Made by a program: the position numbers and the translations under genes. This document shows positions 11,698-40,643 of a stretch of DNA of 64,000 nt, piece by piece; the stretch's first letter is position 1, and each line of letters starts with the position of its first letter. The notes below the pieces were generated by a model. The model searched no databases, was not told the DNA's origin, and was given only the letters and a program-made list of their open reading frames with translations. The stretch comes from Pseudomonadota bacterium (GTDB taxonomy: Bacteria > Pseudomonadota > Alphaproteobacteria > SHVZ01): the NCBI GenBank assembly GCA_016195085.1, contig JACQAG010000048.1, positions 62,001 through 126,000 of the forward strand, in the 5' to 3' direction.

Positions 11698-12870
11698 CTA
11701 CTGCACCATGACCCAGGTCGGGTTCAGGATCGGGAAGGCGATGAGACCGATAGCGGCGGTGACCGCCATCAGAAGCGGGTTGGATAGCTTCTTCCAATAG
11801 AACAGGGCCGCCAGGGAGGCGAGCCCGATGGCGACTGTCAGCCAGTCGCCGATCGCGATCTTGCCCAGGAGGATCGAGGCGCCGGCGATGGTGCCGATGG
11901 CTGCGGCATAGGCGCCTTTGACGAAGCCTTGAACGTTCGGATTGCCGCGGTGTCGGATCAGGATCGGTGCCACGATCAGCACCAGGAGGAAGGACGGCAG
12001 GAAGATGCCGACGGTGGCAACGAGCGAGCCCCAGAACCCGGCGACGAGAAAGCCGACGAAGGTCGCGGTGATCACCACCGGCCCCGGACTGATCATGCCG
12101 ATGGCGACTGCAACCAGGAACTGGCGCTCGTCGAGCCATGCGGCCTGCTGCACCAGCCCCTTCTCGAGGAAGGGAACGATCACCAGCCCGCTGCCGAAGG
12201 TGAGCGAGCCCGCCTTGAGGAAGAACCAGCCGAGCTGAGCGATGGTAGAAGCGCTGGCCGGGGTCCCGGTCACGCCGATGCTGAGCGGGAGCGCGGCCAA
12301 TGCCGCTTCCGGCGGAACCTTCCCGCCGCGAAACAGCGTGCCGTAATAGAGCATGCCGGCGATCCCGGCCGCGATGAACAGGATCGCAATTTCCGCCTCC
12401 AGGACCACGGTCACCACGAAGCAGATCGCCGCGATGGCCCATTGCGGCCAATCCTCCATGCCGAGCTTGGAGAGCCGCCAGCAGGAATGCAGGATGAGCG
12501 CGATCACCGCCGGGCTCACGCCATAGAAGATCGCCGTCACCCAGGAGAGGCCGCCGAAATAGACATAGAGCGCGCCGAGCCCGGCGACGATGACGAAATT
12601 CGGCAGGATGAAGCACCAGCCGTCGGCCCAGGCGCCCCAGAAGCCGCAGCGAAGATAGGAGATGTAGATCCCGACCTGGATCGCCAGCGGCCCCGGCATC
12701 GACTGGCAGACGGCGATGGCATCGCGCATTTCTTCGCGGGTTAGCCATTGGCGCTCGGTCACCAGCTCCCGCTCCATCTGGCCGACCAGTGCCACCGGCC
12801 CGCCGAAGCCAAGCGTCCCCAGCTTCAGGAAGTAGCCGACAAGTTCAGAAATGCGTCCGCGCTCGGCCAT
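11698..12870 (-). CDS. chrA: Chromate transporter, two CHR domains (second copy)
   Basis: 390-residue CHR-superfamily permease, full-length two-domain type. Signature segments are YFLKLGTLGFGGPVALVGQM and VCQSMPGPLAIQVG in the N-half and WFFLKAGSLTFGSGLVIVPF and AIGMISPGPVVITA in the C-half. It is only distantly similar to the other ChrA in the same operon, so this is not a recent duplication. It is first in the leftward operon chrA / LMW-phosphatase-like / chrA / sod / lectin-fold. No chrB regulator or chrF repressor is seen nearby. The cargo could be chromate or another oxyanion. Confidence 0.88.
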   Translation of the reverse strand: MAERGRISELVGYFLKLGTLGFGGPVALVGQMERELVTERQWLTREEMRDAIAVCQSMPGPLAIQVGIYISYLRCGFWGAWADGWCFILPNFVIVAGLGALYVYFGGLSWVTAIFYGVSPAVIALILHSCWRLSKLGMEDWPQWAIAAICFVVTVVLEAEIAILFIAAGIAGMLYYGTLFRGGKVPPEAALAALPLSIGVTGTPASASTIAQLGWFFLKAGSLTFGSGLVIVPFLEKGLVQQAAWLDERQFLVAVAIGMISPGPVVITATFVGFLVAGFWGSLVATVGIFLPSFLLVLIVAPILIRHRGNPNVQGFVKGAYAAAIGTIAGASILLGKIAIGDWLTVAIGLASLAALFYWKKLSNPLLMAVTAAIGLIAFPILNPTWVMVQ

Positions 12871-13283
12871 GGGTCATGCCCCCCGTTCGAAAACACCTGG
12901 AAATCGTAATGATGCGGGGCCGCTGGACGCCGGCAAGCACGCGCATGCTGCGGCGAGCGCGGCTGCGTCTCCGGCACCGGTTCGGCCTGTCGTCGATAGC
13001 GGTGATCTGTGGATCACGATGCCCATGCGCCCAGCCCTCGATCTTCGCGAGTGATGGGCAGCGCTTGGACGGAGCACCGTCTTGGGACGCCGGGAGCCTG
13101 CCAACCCCGACTTTTTATAGATTAAGCCGGGCTCCCATGGAGATCAAGCCCGGCCGCCCCAACCGGGACAAAACGGCTCCCGATGATCAATCGCTTATCC
13201 AGTCGGATCAGCGACTTGCCGATGTCCCGCTGTCCCAGTCCCGGGCACGCGCGGGGCGGGACAGCCATGGACTGGATCCAAGC
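12871..13283. other. Intergenic region upstream of the chromate operon; two hairpins, no gene
   Basis: 413 bp with no convincing coding sequence on either strand. It must hold the leftward promoter of the chrA operon. Two inverted repeats stand out: GCCGGGCT / AGCCCGGC around 13126-13155, and GTCCCGC / GCGGGAC around 13226-13264. Either could act as a transcript end or a palindromic element. A T-rich stretch (CTTTTTATAG) lies near 13110. Confidence 0.4.
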
Positions 13284-31044: not shown

Positions 31045-31146
31045 GCCCCCACCCCGGCCCTCCCCCGCGTTCGCGGGGGAGGGAGCTCAAGGGCGCTTCG
31101 GTTGCTCCCTCCCCCGCTGGAGGCGGGGGAGGGCCGGGGTGGGGGC
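31045..31146. repeat. Intergenic palindromic repeat, family B, copy 1
   Basis: Begins GCCCCCACCCCGGCCCTCCC and ends with its inverse; internally it holds two smaller CTCCCCCGC...GCGGGGGAG hairpins. The same design is found at 40655-40756 and 57419-57474. It lies just after the dehydratase stop, where a terminator role is possible. Confidence 0.75.
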
Positions 31147-32034: not shown

Positions 32035-32196
32035 TGCTTGGCCGATATTGACCCCGGGCCGAAATTAACCAATCCGTGTTGCGACGCAGCAACACTGGGC
32101 CGACCGAAAGGCCCCTCGAATAGCCTAGCGGCATTGAATCAAAGGCAAAATATTCGATGTTTGACTTTGCTGCGCCGCGGTATTATCTCTGATCTT

Positions 32197-32294
32197 GCGG
32201 CAAGCGGGTGCCCTTCGGGGTCCGGTTGCCGTGGCCCTTCTTGGGCGTTTCCTCCCTAAACTCGGGCCGTGGTTCGCCACGGCCCGTTTTTTTT
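32197..32294 (+). ncRNA. mmgR: Small RNA resembling MmgR/suhB (alpha-r8 family)
   Basis: A structured intergenic transcript is predicted on the + strand. The 5' stem-loop is CGGCAAG... to ...GGTTGCCG with a TTCG loop (32198-32231), a short hairpin GCCC-TTCTT-GGGC follows (32234-32246), and then the single-stranded decamer TTTCCTCCCT (32248-32257), complementary to Shine-Dalgarno sequences and, from memory, the conserved motif of the alphaproteobacterial MmgR/suhB family. A textbook terminator (32263-32286) and eight T end it. TTGACT at 32161 may be the -35 element. MmgR limits polyhydroxybutyrate accumulation in Sinorhizobium. The 5' end is a guess. Confidence 0.6.
32263..32294 (+). terminator. 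Intrinsic terminator of the sRNA
   Basis: CGGGCCGTGG-TTCG-CCACGGCCCG, a perfect 10-bp stem with a TTCG tetraloop, followed by T8. It also faces the end of the convergent N-formylglutamate amidohydrolase gene 34 bp away. Confidence 0.9.
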
Positions 32295-32327
32295 CGTGGG
32301 GGCCGCCTTTTTTGGGTGTGCAGGGGC

Positions 32328-33269
32328 TCAGCGATCGGCGAGCTGGCGGATGGTGAGCCGGCCCAACTCTTTCAGAACCTCGCGCATGTCGCGGGCGAGC
32401 GTCGGCAGATAGGCTGTCCGCTCGAGCGCGCGCTCGTCCATATAAAGCGCGCGGTTGATCTCGATCTGGAGAGCGTGCAACCCGTCCTGCGGGCGTCCGT
32501 AGTGCCGGGTGGTGTAGCCGCCGGCATAGGGCGCGTTGCGGACCACGCGGTAGCCCTTGGCGCGGAGCCGCGTCTCCACCGTCTCGACCACCACGGGCGC
32601 GCAGGCCGAGCCGAAGCAATCGCCCAAGACGAAGTCGGCGGTGGCGCGACCGCCATCGGTATCCGCGGGTCCGCCGGCCGAGGGGCCGGTGGCGGACGGC
32701 ATGGAATGGCAATCCAAGAGGATCGAGCAGCCGAAGCGCATCGTGGTCGCCTCGACGAGACCGCTCAGGGCCGCGTGATAGGGCCGGTAGCATGCTTCGA
32801 TGCGGGCCAAGGCATCGCCCACCCGGAGCTTGCGGGCATAGATGTCGTCGCCGCCCGCCACCACGCGGGCGATGGTGCCGAGCCCGGCGGCGACACGGGG
32901 AGACCGGGTGTTGGCATAGGCCGGGAGTTCGTCCTCGAACATGAGCGGATCCAGCTCATAGGGCTCCCGGTTGGCATCGACATAGACCCGGGGGAAGAGG
33001 GCGCAGAGCAGGGGCGCGCCCAAGCCCGGGGCAGCGGCGAAGATCTCGTCGACGAAGCTGTCTTCCGAGCGTCGGAGCGCCTGGCGGTCAAGCGCGCAAT
33101 GGGAGAGAAAGCCCGGCGGATACTCGCGCCCGCTATGGGGCGAGGCGCAAACGAGCGGCAGGGTTTGCTCCAGCGGCGCCGAAAGCACGAAGGGCGGGAA
33201 GGCGTTGCCGGGGCCTGGCGGGATCGAATCCATCGATTCGGATTTAGATGAATCGGCCGAATCTGTCAC
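32328..33269 (-). CDS. N-formylglutamate amidohydrolase
   Basis: 313-residue hydrolase of the N-formylglutamate amidohydrolase family (Zn-dependent), which converts N-formyl-L-glutamate to glutamate and formate at the end of one histidine-degradation route. Family landmarks are LVCASPHSGREYPPGFL, the DANREPYELDPLMFEDELP segment, LLDCHSMPS and QIEINRALYMDE. The frame opens with GTG at 33269; an ATG at 33233 (MDSIPPGPGN) is an equal alternative and neither has a strong ribosome-binding site. No other hut genes are near, so it may belong to another N-formyl or N-acyl amino-acid pathway. Confidence 0.88.
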   Translation of the reverse strand: MTDSADSSKSESMDSIPPGPGNAFPPFVLSAPLEQTLPLVCASPHSGREYPPGFLSHCALDRQALRRSEDSFVDEIFAAAPGLGAPLLCALFPRVYVDANREPYELDPLMFEDELPAYANTRSPRVAAGLGTIARVVAGGDDIYARKLRVGDALARIEACYRPYHAALSGLVEATTMRFGCSILLDCHSMPSATGPSAGGPADTDGGRATADFVLGDCFGSACAPVVVETVETRLRAKGYRVVRNAPYAGGYTTRHYGRPQDGLHALQIEINRALYMDERALERTAYLPTLARDMREVLKELGRLTIRQLADR

Positions 33270-33407: not shown

Positions 33408-33482
<75 letters not shown>

Positions 33483-39050: not shown

Positions 39051-40643
39051 ATGACCCACCCTCTTTGCTGGTCCGCCTTGCAGAGCGCGCCGGCGCTGCT
39101 GCTTGCCGCAAGCCTGCTGGCGCCGGGCACGGCCTCAGCCCAGCCGAAGGTGCTGAAATACACGCCCCAGGCCAATGTCGGCACCATGGACCCGGTCAAC
39201 AATTTGAGCTCGGTCACCCACCAGCATAGCTGGCTCATCTACGACAATCTCTTCGGCCTCGACGGCACCGGATCGCCACAGCCGCAGATGGTCGAGAGCT
39301 TCAAGCTCAGCCCCGATGGCCGGGACTACAGCCTCACCTTGCGGCCCGGCCTCAAGTTCCACGACGGCACGCCGGTGCGCGTGGCCGACGTCATTGCCTC
39401 CATCAAGCGCTGGGCGGCGAAGGATCCCGGCGGCAGACGTCTCGTCGGTCTCGGCATGGAGCTGAAGCCGGCTGATGAGCGCAGCTTCACGCTGACCCTC
39501 AAGGAGCCTTGGGGCTCGACCACGACGGTGCTGGCCCAGGGCGCCACGGCGCTCTTCATCATGCGCGAGAAGGAGGCCACGAGCGATCCCAGCACACCGG
39601 TCACCGAGTATGTCGGCTCCGGACCGTTTCGCTTCGTCAAGGACGAGTGGCAGCCCGGCAGCAAGCTCGTCTACCAGAAATTTGCCGACTACGTGCCGCG
39701 TGCGGAACCGGCCAATTCCGTCGCCGGCGGCAAGGTCGCCAAGGTCGACCGCATCGAATGGGTGATCCTGCCGGACGCCACCACCGCGGTGGCGGCCTTG
39801 AACCAGGGCGAGATCGACATCTACGAAACGCCGCCCCTGGATCTGCTGCCGGTCTTGAAGCGCAACAAGGACATCCAGATCAAGGTCATCAACCGCCAAG
39901 GTGCTCTCGGCTATTTCCGGCCGAATTTCCTCTTTCCGCCCTTCAACGACGTACGCGCGCGCCATGCTCTCCAGCTCATCGTCAACCAGGAGGACTACAT
40001 GCGCGCCGCCGTCGGCAGCGACCCGGACAATTGGCGGGTCTGCTGGGCGGTCATGGTGTGCGGCACGCCGACCGCGAGCGAGGCCGGCAGCGAGCCCTAC
40101 CGCAAGCCCGACCTCGCCAAGGCCAAGGCGCTCATGGCCGAGGCCGGCTACAAGGGCGAGAAGATCGTCGTCCTGCAGCCCGTCGACCAGCAGATCATCC
40201 GCGACATGGCGCAGGTGACGATCCAGCGCCTGACCGATATCGGCGTCAACGTCGAGGCGGTCGCGGTCGATTGGGCGTCGGTGCTGCAGCGGGGCAACAA
40301 GAAGGATCCGCCCGGCCAAGGCGGCTGGCACATATTCTCCAGCTGGTCGGTGGGCCAGATCATGGGCAGCGCCATCAACAACGTGCAGATCGACTCGCCC
40401 TGCGACGGCAGCGGCTATCGCGGCTGGTCCTGCGACCCGGAGATGCAGAGGCTGTTGGGGGAGTGGGCCAAGGAGGGCGATCTCGCCAAGCGCAAGGCCA
40501 TCGGCGAGAAGATCCAAATCCAGGCGATGACCTTCGTGCAATACGTTCCGGTCGGCCAGTTCTTCCAGCCCTTGGCCATGCGCGCCAATATCAAGGGCAT
40601 GCAGGAGAACATGATCCCGGTGTTCTGGAACGTGGAGAAATAG
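39051..40643 (+). CDS. ABC transporter binding protein, family 5 (peptide/opine type), orphan
   Basis: 530-residue periplasmic binding protein with a Sec leader (APALLLAASLLAPGTASAQ). Family-5 features are MDPVNNLSSVTHQHSWLIYD, LRPGLKFHDGTPVRVADVIA, the YVGSGPFRFVKDEWQPGSKL segment and a CW...VCG cysteine pair around residue 330. Substrates of the family include peptides, opines and oligosaccharides. GGGGAG precedes the ATG. No DppBCDF-like permease or ATPase genes adjoin. It is clearly paralogous to the binding protein at 49918-51495. Confidence 0.9.
   Translation: MTHPLCWSALQSAPALLLAASLLAPGTASAQPKVLKYTPQANVGTMDPVNNLSSVTHQHSWLIYDNLFGLDGTGSPQPQMVESFKLSPDGRDYSLTLRPGLKFHDGTPVRVADVIASIKRWAAKDPGGRRLVGLGMELKPADERSFTLTLKEPWGSTTTVLAQGATALFIMREKEATSDPSTPVTEYVGSGPFRFVKDEWQPGSKLVYQKFADYVPRAEPANSVAGGKVAKVDRIEWVILPDATTAVAALNQGEIDIYETPPLDLLPVLKRNKDIQIKVINRQGALGYFRPNFLFPPFNDVRARHALQLIVNQEDYMRAAVGSDPDNWRVCWAVMVCGTPTASEAGSEPYRKPDLAKAKALMAEAGYKGEKIVVLQPVDQQIIRDMAQVTIQRLTDIGVNVEAVAVDWASVLQRGNKKDPPGQGGWHIFSSWSVGQIMGSAINNVQIDSPCDGSGYRGWSCDPEMQRLLGEWAKEGDLAKRKAIGEKIQIQAMTFVQYVPVGQFFQPLAMRANIKGMQENMIPVFWNVEK

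What the first reader, a model, noticed from the sequence alone, without database searches (positions are those of the whole stretch)
32161..32294. Candidate MmgR/suhB-family small RNA
A short intergenic unit has a possible -35 (TTGACT, 32161), stacked hairpins, the exposed anti-Shine-Dalgarno decamer TTTCCTCCCT and a perfect TTCG-loop terminator with T8. That combination is, to my knowledge, the signature of the alphaproteobacterial MmgR sRNA, known to limit PHB accumulation. If right, it extends the family to this lineage and gives a post-transcriptional regulator in the window.
Basis: partly seen in the sequence, partly recalled or inferred. Interest (0 to 1): 0.6.

Follow-up and report, generated by a model that had tools for sequence, protein, structure and literature searches.

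The report
MmgR-type small RNA beside FGase gene
The short stretch is a real member of a known bacterial small-RNA family that blocks the translation start of messenger RNAs; here its promoter carries a likely switch tied to carbon storage and its best predicted targets are nutrient-uptake genes, which is sound but mostly expected.

Summary
Rfam suhB (RF00519, MmgR/alpha-r8) matches window 32227-32300 (+) over its whole length: 72 bits against a cut-off of 41, E 6.5e-13. The locus is canonical: the sRNA converges on an N-formylglutamate amidohydrolase (FGase) gene, and 51 of 80 named FGase loci carry a suhB hit, all in this arrangement. The lineage is not new for the family.

Predicted pairing with the two phasins is weak.

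Most likely it is an Hfq-assisted, PhaR-gated repressor of nutrient-uptake mRNAs. Family membership is near certain; targets and PhaR control are inferred; a PHB role here is untested. New member of a known kind.

The parts
   Evidence: Sequence; TTGACTTYGCTGCRNCGCGG once in each of 7 of 7 family-level loci, own plus six
32165..32185 (+). PhaR/AniA-type box CTTTGCTGCGCCGCGGTATTA, 20 of 21 to the S. meliloti consensus WNWDDNYGCRNYGCRNHHWNW
   Evidence: 1 mismatch; 3 such matches in the window against 4.6 expected, so not significant alone; consensus from PMC12542648; TGCNNYGC upstream of 67 of 79 loci against 13.4 +/- 3.2 in shuffles
32183..32188 (+). -10 element TTATCT (17 nt from TTTGAC)
   Evidence: Sequence; inferred, not found by the generic scan
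32197..32232 (+). 5' stem-loop SL1, upstream of the part modelled as paired by Rfam
   Evidence: fold; z mean -2.33 in 51 named loci against -0.01 for a far-upstream control in the same loci
32227..32300 (+). Rfam suhB (RF00519, MmgR/alpha-r8) core
   Evidence: 72 bits, cut-off 41, E 6.5e-13, model 1-77 of 77
32234..32246 (+). weak hairpin SL2, GCCC-UUCUU-GGGC
32248..32257 (+). anti-Shine-Dalgarno decamer UUUCCUCCCU, the seed
   Evidence: unpaired probability 0.88-1.00
32263..32294 (+). intrinsic terminator: 10-bp stem, UUCG loop, U8
   Evidence: the pairs vary and are kept in an alignment of 77 sequences
32328..33269 (-). FGase gene (N-formylglutamate amidohydrolase), convergent neighbour and family landmark
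   Evidence: PF05013, 249.7 bits; linkage
33408..33482 (+). tRNA-Val(GAC) beyond FGase; a tRNA also lies upstream of FGase in 63 of the 80 named loci

Best explanation
This is the FGase-linked alpha-r8 (MmgR/SisA-type) sRNA gene of this alphaproteobacterium. A roughly 98-100 nt RNA, from about 32195-32197 to 32294, is made from its own promoter (inferred). PhaR, the PHB-sensing repressor, probably binds the box between -35 and -10 and holds it down until PHB accumulates (inferred from the box, from S. meliloti data and from a phaR gene in this genome). The RNA consists of SL1, a weak SL2, the single-stranded UUUCCUCCCU seed and a terminator (shown by sequence and folding). With Hfq (gene present) the seed pairs with the ribosome-binding site of target mRNAs and blocks translation (shown for SisA in Caulobacter, inferred here). 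The strongest predicted targets in this genome are mRNAs of ABC-transporter substrate-binding proteins, so its main job is most likely to throttle nutrient uptake; an effect on PHB would be one output or an indirect one.
For: Family: Rfam hit; hits above cut-off in 6 of 6 same-family genomes and 32 of 60 class-level relatives. Synteny: 51 of 80 named FGase loci, all downstream and convergent; FGase also found in 22 of 31 genome-search loci, all convergent. Fold and accessible seed. SL1. PhaR box: 67 of 79 upstream regions; PhaR, PhaC and two phasins in the genome, each phasin promoter with two YGCRNYGCR boxes 55 bp apart. S. meliloti PhaR binds the mmgR box in EMSA (PMC12542648). Hfq gene. Targets: 6 of 12 own GGGAGGAAAN1-4RTG sites start substrate-binding proteins, 10 of 25 inspected of 37 in six relatives, 0 of 30 inspected control AAGGAGR sites. 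At ORF level 6 of 11 against 0 of 14, p 0.0026. Duplex energies for the 9 annotated own targets are -17.2 to -23.0 kcal/mol against a mean of -8.3, sd 3.2, for 50 window ORFs. SisA directly represses transporter mRNAs through the same decamer (PMC12559287).
Against: No transcript, Hfq or target data exist for this organism. The PhaR box alone is not significant in the window (3 matches against 4.6 expected), and the window promoter lacks the second box that the same-family relatives show near -10. The promoter is invisible to the generic scan. Not all substrate-binding protein genes carry the target site: at least two in the window score weakly (ORFs at 39051 and 49918, -12.5 and -7.5; judged as such by eye, not by Pfam). 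One background ORF reaches -18.4. Other anti-SD sRNAs (AbcR, NfeR1 types) could be what selects the same SD motif. The control sample was 30 of 148 sites.
Confidence: 0.75

Rival explanations
1. It acts as in S. meliloti chiefly as a limiter of PHB, by repressing the phasin mRNAs post-transcriptionally.
For: Same family; phaR, phaC and two phasins present; PhaR-type box in the promoter. In S. meliloti loss of the MmgR core raises PhaP1, PhaP2 and PHB (PMC8401924 passages).
Against: Predicted pairing with phasin start regions is -12.4 and -10.5 kcal/mol, within about 1.3 sd of background and far weaker than the substrate-binding protein set. No direct phasin pairing is known even in S. meliloti (PMC12559287 discussion).
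Confidence: 0.3
2. It is only the terminator region between two converging genes, or a decayed sRNA remnant without activity.
For: It lies 33 nt from the FGase stop codon; no transcript data; one generic promoter scan is negative.
Against: Full-length model match with an intact decamer, a promoter block conserved in 7 of 7 loci, a conserved SL1 and terminator pairs kept through change.
Confidence: 0.03
3. It belongs to another sRNA family (SorY, BjrC1505 or ncS54).
For: Weak matches: SorY 29.7 bits, ncS54 26.0, BjrC1505 25.7.
Against: All are far below their cut-offs (111, 43, 50), whereas suhB is 31 bits above its own.
Confidence: 0.01

Closest known systems
Rfam RF00519 suhB / MmgR (alpha-r8) of Sinorhizobium meliloti
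   Same: Full-length model match, decamer, weak hairpin, terminator; a PhaR/AniA-type box in the promoter, as EMSA-tested in S. meliloti
   Different: Predicted RNA about 98-100 nt against 77 nt; long GC-rich SL1; a second, weaker family copy in this genome (37.6 bits) where S. meliloti has one; phasin pairing predicted weak
SisA of Caulobacter crescentus (alpha-r8)
   Same: FGase-linked copy, same decamer, same inferred mode: SD pairing on transporter mRNAs
   Different: SisA targets include many TonB-dependent receptors; here the predicted targets are ABC substrate-binding proteins. No CrfA-like sponge was seen among the 12 non-self decamer-complement sites, but the check was of short contexts only
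AbcR1/2 and NfeR1 sRNAs of S. meliloti
   Same: Anti-SD seeds that silence ABC substrate-binding protein mRNAs (PMC8844928 passages)
   Different: Different families, structures and seeds; an analogue in action only

Membership tests
Rfam RF00519 / alpha-r8 (MmgR, SisA) | Covariance-model score above the curated cut-off over the whole model | tested here: met
   72 bits against 41, positions 1-77 of 77
Rfam RF00519 / alpha-r8 (MmgR, SisA) | Single-stranded 10-mer UUUCCUCCCU downstream of a weak hairpin | tested here: met
   32248-32257, unpaired probability 0.88-1.00 after hairpin 32234-32246; feature as described in PMC12559287
Rfam RF00519 / alpha-r8 (MmgR, SisA) | Rho-independent terminator | tested here: met
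   32263-32294
Rfam RF00519 / alpha-r8 (MmgR, SisA) | Linkage to an FGase gene (usual, not universal) | tested here: met
   FGase at 32328-33269; 51 of 80 named FGase loci have the sRNA
Rfam RF00519 / alpha-r8 (MmgR, SisA) | Independent small transcript | not testable with these tools
   Only a conserved promoter block; the generic scan was negative
Rfam RF00519 / alpha-r8 (MmgR, SisA) | Hfq association | not testable with these tools
   An hfq gene is present
S. meliloti MmgR in function | PhaR/AniA site in the promoter between -35 and -10 | tested here: met
   20 of 21 positions at 32165-32185; weak as a single site, strong across 79 loci
S. meliloti MmgR in function | Represses phasins and limits PHB | tested here: inconclusive
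   Phasin genes exist, predicted pairing weak; no experiment possible
S. meliloti MmgR in function | Activation by NtrC under nitrogen limitation | not tested
   No NtrC site search was made
SisA in function | SD pairing represses transporter mRNAs | tested here: inconclusive
   Strong enrichment of substrate-binding protein starts among perfect complements; no experiment

The most novel reading that the evidence does not exclude
In this order, and perhaps ancestrally, the FGase-linked alpha-r8 RNA is the arm by which PHB status feeds back on nutrient import: PhaR, when drawn to PHB granules, frees the sRNA promoter, and the sRNA shuts the start sites of ABC and TRAP substrate-binding proteins. 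Phasin or PHB effects would then be secondary.
Probability: 0.35. Interest if true: 0.55.

Novelty: new member of a known kind. Interest (0 to 1): 0.32.

Why it matters
As a find it confirms a family member at its usual place. What could matter is the pattern around it: a PhaR-type box upstream of most FGase-linked alpha-r8 genes examined, and seed-complementary Shine-Dalgarno sites concentrated on importer genes. Together they offer a direct, testable reason why a storage-linked RNA should carry one invariant decamer across the Alphaproteobacteria.

Tried and rejected
Other Rfam families: SorY, ncS54, BjrC1505 and anti-hemB score far below their cut-offs. A CrfA-like sponge: the perfect complement AGGGAGGAAA occurs 14 times in the genome, two being the sRNA loci; only short contexts of the other 12 were read, five of them Shine-Dalgarno sites, and none was seen as an obvious sponge. 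This is a shallow check. Control SD AAGGAGAAAN1-4RTG gave one site and was uninformative, so AAGGAGR was used. RNAalifold on a MAFFT alignment of 77 sequences recovered only the terminator, because SL1 varies in length and sequence; SL1 rests on single-sequence z-scores. The PhaR box in the window alone is not significant. Plasmid records gave only short partial matches. Duplicate genomes exist between the two locus sets (for example L020 with L097, L032 with L119), so the 79 upstream regions include a few repeats; 77 distinct RNA sequences remained. L002 and L036 were left out of the 79.

Full report
WHAT IS THERE. Rfam's suhB model (RF00519, described as Makes More Granules Regulator RNA, mmgR) matches 32227-32300 on the + strand from model position 1 to 77 with 72 bits; the cut-off is 41 and E is 6.5e-13 for the window. 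A focused scan gives the same hit; the next families are SorY (29.7 bits, cut-off 111), ncS54 (26.0, 43), BjrC1505 (25.7, 50) and anti-hemB (19.1, 49.5), all rejected. The RNA 32193-32297 folds at -54.2 kcal/mol, z -4.83. Modelled from 32195, it has SL1 at 32197-32232, SL2 at 32234-32246, the decamer UUUCCUCCCU at 32248-32257 (88-100% unpaired) and the terminator at 32263-32294.

IS IT UNUSUAL FOR THE LINEAGE? No. In 60 relatives, 35 have a match at E <= 0.001 and 32 are over the cut-off; all 6 same-family genomes are among them. Of the 25 without a match, 19 have genomes listed at 1.9 Mb or less, and that search used stricter filters. A 2025 paper states that the family occurs in all Alphaproteobacteria except Rickettsiales and that most species carry one copy next to an FGase gene (PMC12559287, section 7). 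That arrangement is here: the FGase gene (PF05013) lies at 32328-33269 on the - strand, 33 nt past the terminator, facing the sRNA.

SYNTENY TEST. A profile of 12 FGase proteins brought 80 named loci. Rfam, run on all 80, found suhB above the cut-off in 51 (13, 12, 13 and 13 in the four batches), every one downstream of and convergent with FGase, at 5 to 2362 nt. In 31 oriented loci from the genome search (including the second own copy), FGase was found in 22, always convergent. In same-family relatives a further gene lies between sRNA and FGase; it looks like a GNAT acetyltransferase, a name recalled from the sequence and not tested.

PROMOTER. All 7 family-level loci (own plus six) carry TTGACTTYGCTGCRNCGCGG once. 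The block holds a -35 element and a palindrome YGCRNYGCR. This is the core of the PhaR (AniA) site: WNWDDNYGCRNYGCRNHHWNW in S. meliloti, where PhaR binds the mmgR promoter in EMSA (PMC12542648, passages), and TGCRNYGCASMA in Bradyrhizobium (PMC6201568, passages). The window box matches 20 of 21 positions at 32165-32185. Alone this proves little, because the window has 3 such matches against 4.6 expected. Across 79 upstream regions, however, TGCNNYGC occurs in 67, against 13.4 +/- 3.2 in 200 shuffles (largest 23); the stricter TTGTGCNNYGC occurs in 39 against 0.3. The genome encodes PhaR, PhaC and two phasins, and each phasin start is preceded by two YGCRNYGCR boxes 55 bp apart. Whether box conservation upstream of alpha-r8 genes outside rhizobia is in print I could not settle: searches showed only the S. 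meliloti case, and the 2016-2018 papers of the MmgR group (known only through citations) were not read; the one looked up by its PMC number (2017) is not held.

THE 5' HAIRPIN. Rfam models the first seven positions as unpaired. Here they are the 3' arm of SL1. In 51 named loci the 40 nt at this place fold with mean z -2.33 (42 of 51 below -1), against -0.01 (11 of 51) for 40 nt further upstream in the same loci. Its sequence varies widely, so it looks like a structural 5' cap; the review literature mentions three stem-loops for MmgR (PMC7143759, passage).

TARGETS. The perfect complement AGGGAGGAAA occurs 14 times in the genome, the reversed control 0. Two occurrences are the sRNA loci, and five lie 2-3 nt before a start codon. 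With the start codon built in, GGGAGGAAAN1-4RTG gives 12 sites. Ten were scanned with Pfam; six are substrate-binding proteins (Peripla_BP_4, SBP_bac_5 three times, Peripla_BP_6 twice), and the others are Band_7, DUF190, Lactamase_B_2 and one without a family. The two sites not scanned are a repeat of that last one and a 4-codon frame. In six relatives there are 37 sites. Twenty-five were fetched and 20 scanned, and ten are substrate-binding proteins. Control: AAGGAGRN3-6RTG gives 148 sites; 30 were fetched, 14 start frames of 60 or more residues, all 14 were scanned, and none is a substrate-binding protein. Fisher tests: own sites 6 of 12 against 0 of 30, p 1.8e-4; frames of 60 or more residues 6 of 11 against 0 of 14, p 0.0026; pooled sites (12 own plus 25 from relatives) 16 of 37 against 0 of 30, p 1.7e-5. 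The frame-level figure is the fairest, since many control sites are chance. Duplex energies with the 17-nt seed are -17.2 to -23.0 kcal/mol for nine own sites, -12.4 and -10.5 for the phasins, -6.0 for phaR and -8.3 +/- 3.2 for 50 window frames, the lowest of which is -18.4. Two caveats: strong pairing of the nine follows from how they were chosen, so the informative result is which genes they are; and AbcR/NfeR1-type RNAs with similar seeds also act on such genes (PMC8844928, passages), so the motif may serve several RNAs.

HOW IT MOST LIKELY WORKS. Shown here: family, structure, synteny, promoter-block conservation, and the kind of gene whose start site matches the seed. Shown elsewhere: SisA of Caulobacter represses transporter mRNAs by pairing this decamer with the 5' UTR, with Hfq, proven by compensatory mutation (PMC12559287, sections 7-9); its targets are rich in TonB receptors and other transporters. 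S. meliloti PhaR represses mmgR, and deletion of the MmgR core raises phasins and PHB (PMC8401924, passages). Inferred: in this organism PhaR gates the sRNA, and the sRNA throttles substrate-binding proteins.

A SECOND COPY. G000:C55:96419-96493 (-) scores 37.6 bits, below the cut-off of 41. It shares the decamer and the following AAACTCGGGCCG, has no YGCRNYGCR in the 250 nt upstream, and its decamer is partly paired. It resembles the sibling copies of Caulobacter, which have unrelated promoters.

PAPERS, WHAT I SAW. PMC12559287: abstract, outline, sections 6-9, first part of the discussion, passages. PMC7143759, PMC8401924, PMC9049629, PMC12542648, PMC6201568 and PMC8844928: passages only. 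All others: search listings only.

VERDICT. A genuine, canonical alpha-r8 sRNA and a new member of a known kind. The interest lies in the PhaR box and the importer targets, which are predictions.

Noticed in passing
window 13058-13110 (-): Rfam chrB-b cis-regulatory RNA (56.2 bits, cut-off 36.5) lies just upstream of a - strand gene, 11698-12870, that looks by eye like a chromate transporter.
   Followed up: no
L002 (G000:C55:96419-96493, - strand): Second alpha-r8 copy in the same genome, 37.6 bits, below the Rfam cut-off, with the exact decamer but no PhaR box in 250 nt upstream.
   Followed up: partly
L028 (G059:C34:9344-9417): A family copy with the decamer TTTCCTCCCT twice in tandem, 20 nt apart, the first in place of the usual region before SL2.
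   Followed up: no
G039:C7:54432-55030: Three suhB hits above the cut-off in tandem within about 600 nt.
   Followed up: no
L150 (record CAJCJG010000241.1): A record titled Solirubrobacterales bacterium (actinobacterial) carries the FGase plus alpha-r8 locus; probably a mis-binned alphaproteobacterial contig.
   Followed up: no
L038 and L039 (phasin genes): Both phasin genes have two PhaR-type boxes with the same 55-bp spacing, at -151/-96 and -88/-33 from the start codon used.
   Followed up: partly
window about 31050-31145: GC-rich inverted repeat (ggccctcccccgcg...cgcgggggaggg...), which looks like an interspersed genomic repeat.
   Followed up: no
window 33408-33482: tRNA-Val(GAC) on the far side of FGase; a tRNA also lies upstream of FGase in 63 of the 80 named loci, so the tRNA-FGase-sRNA order looks conserved.
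   Followed up: partly
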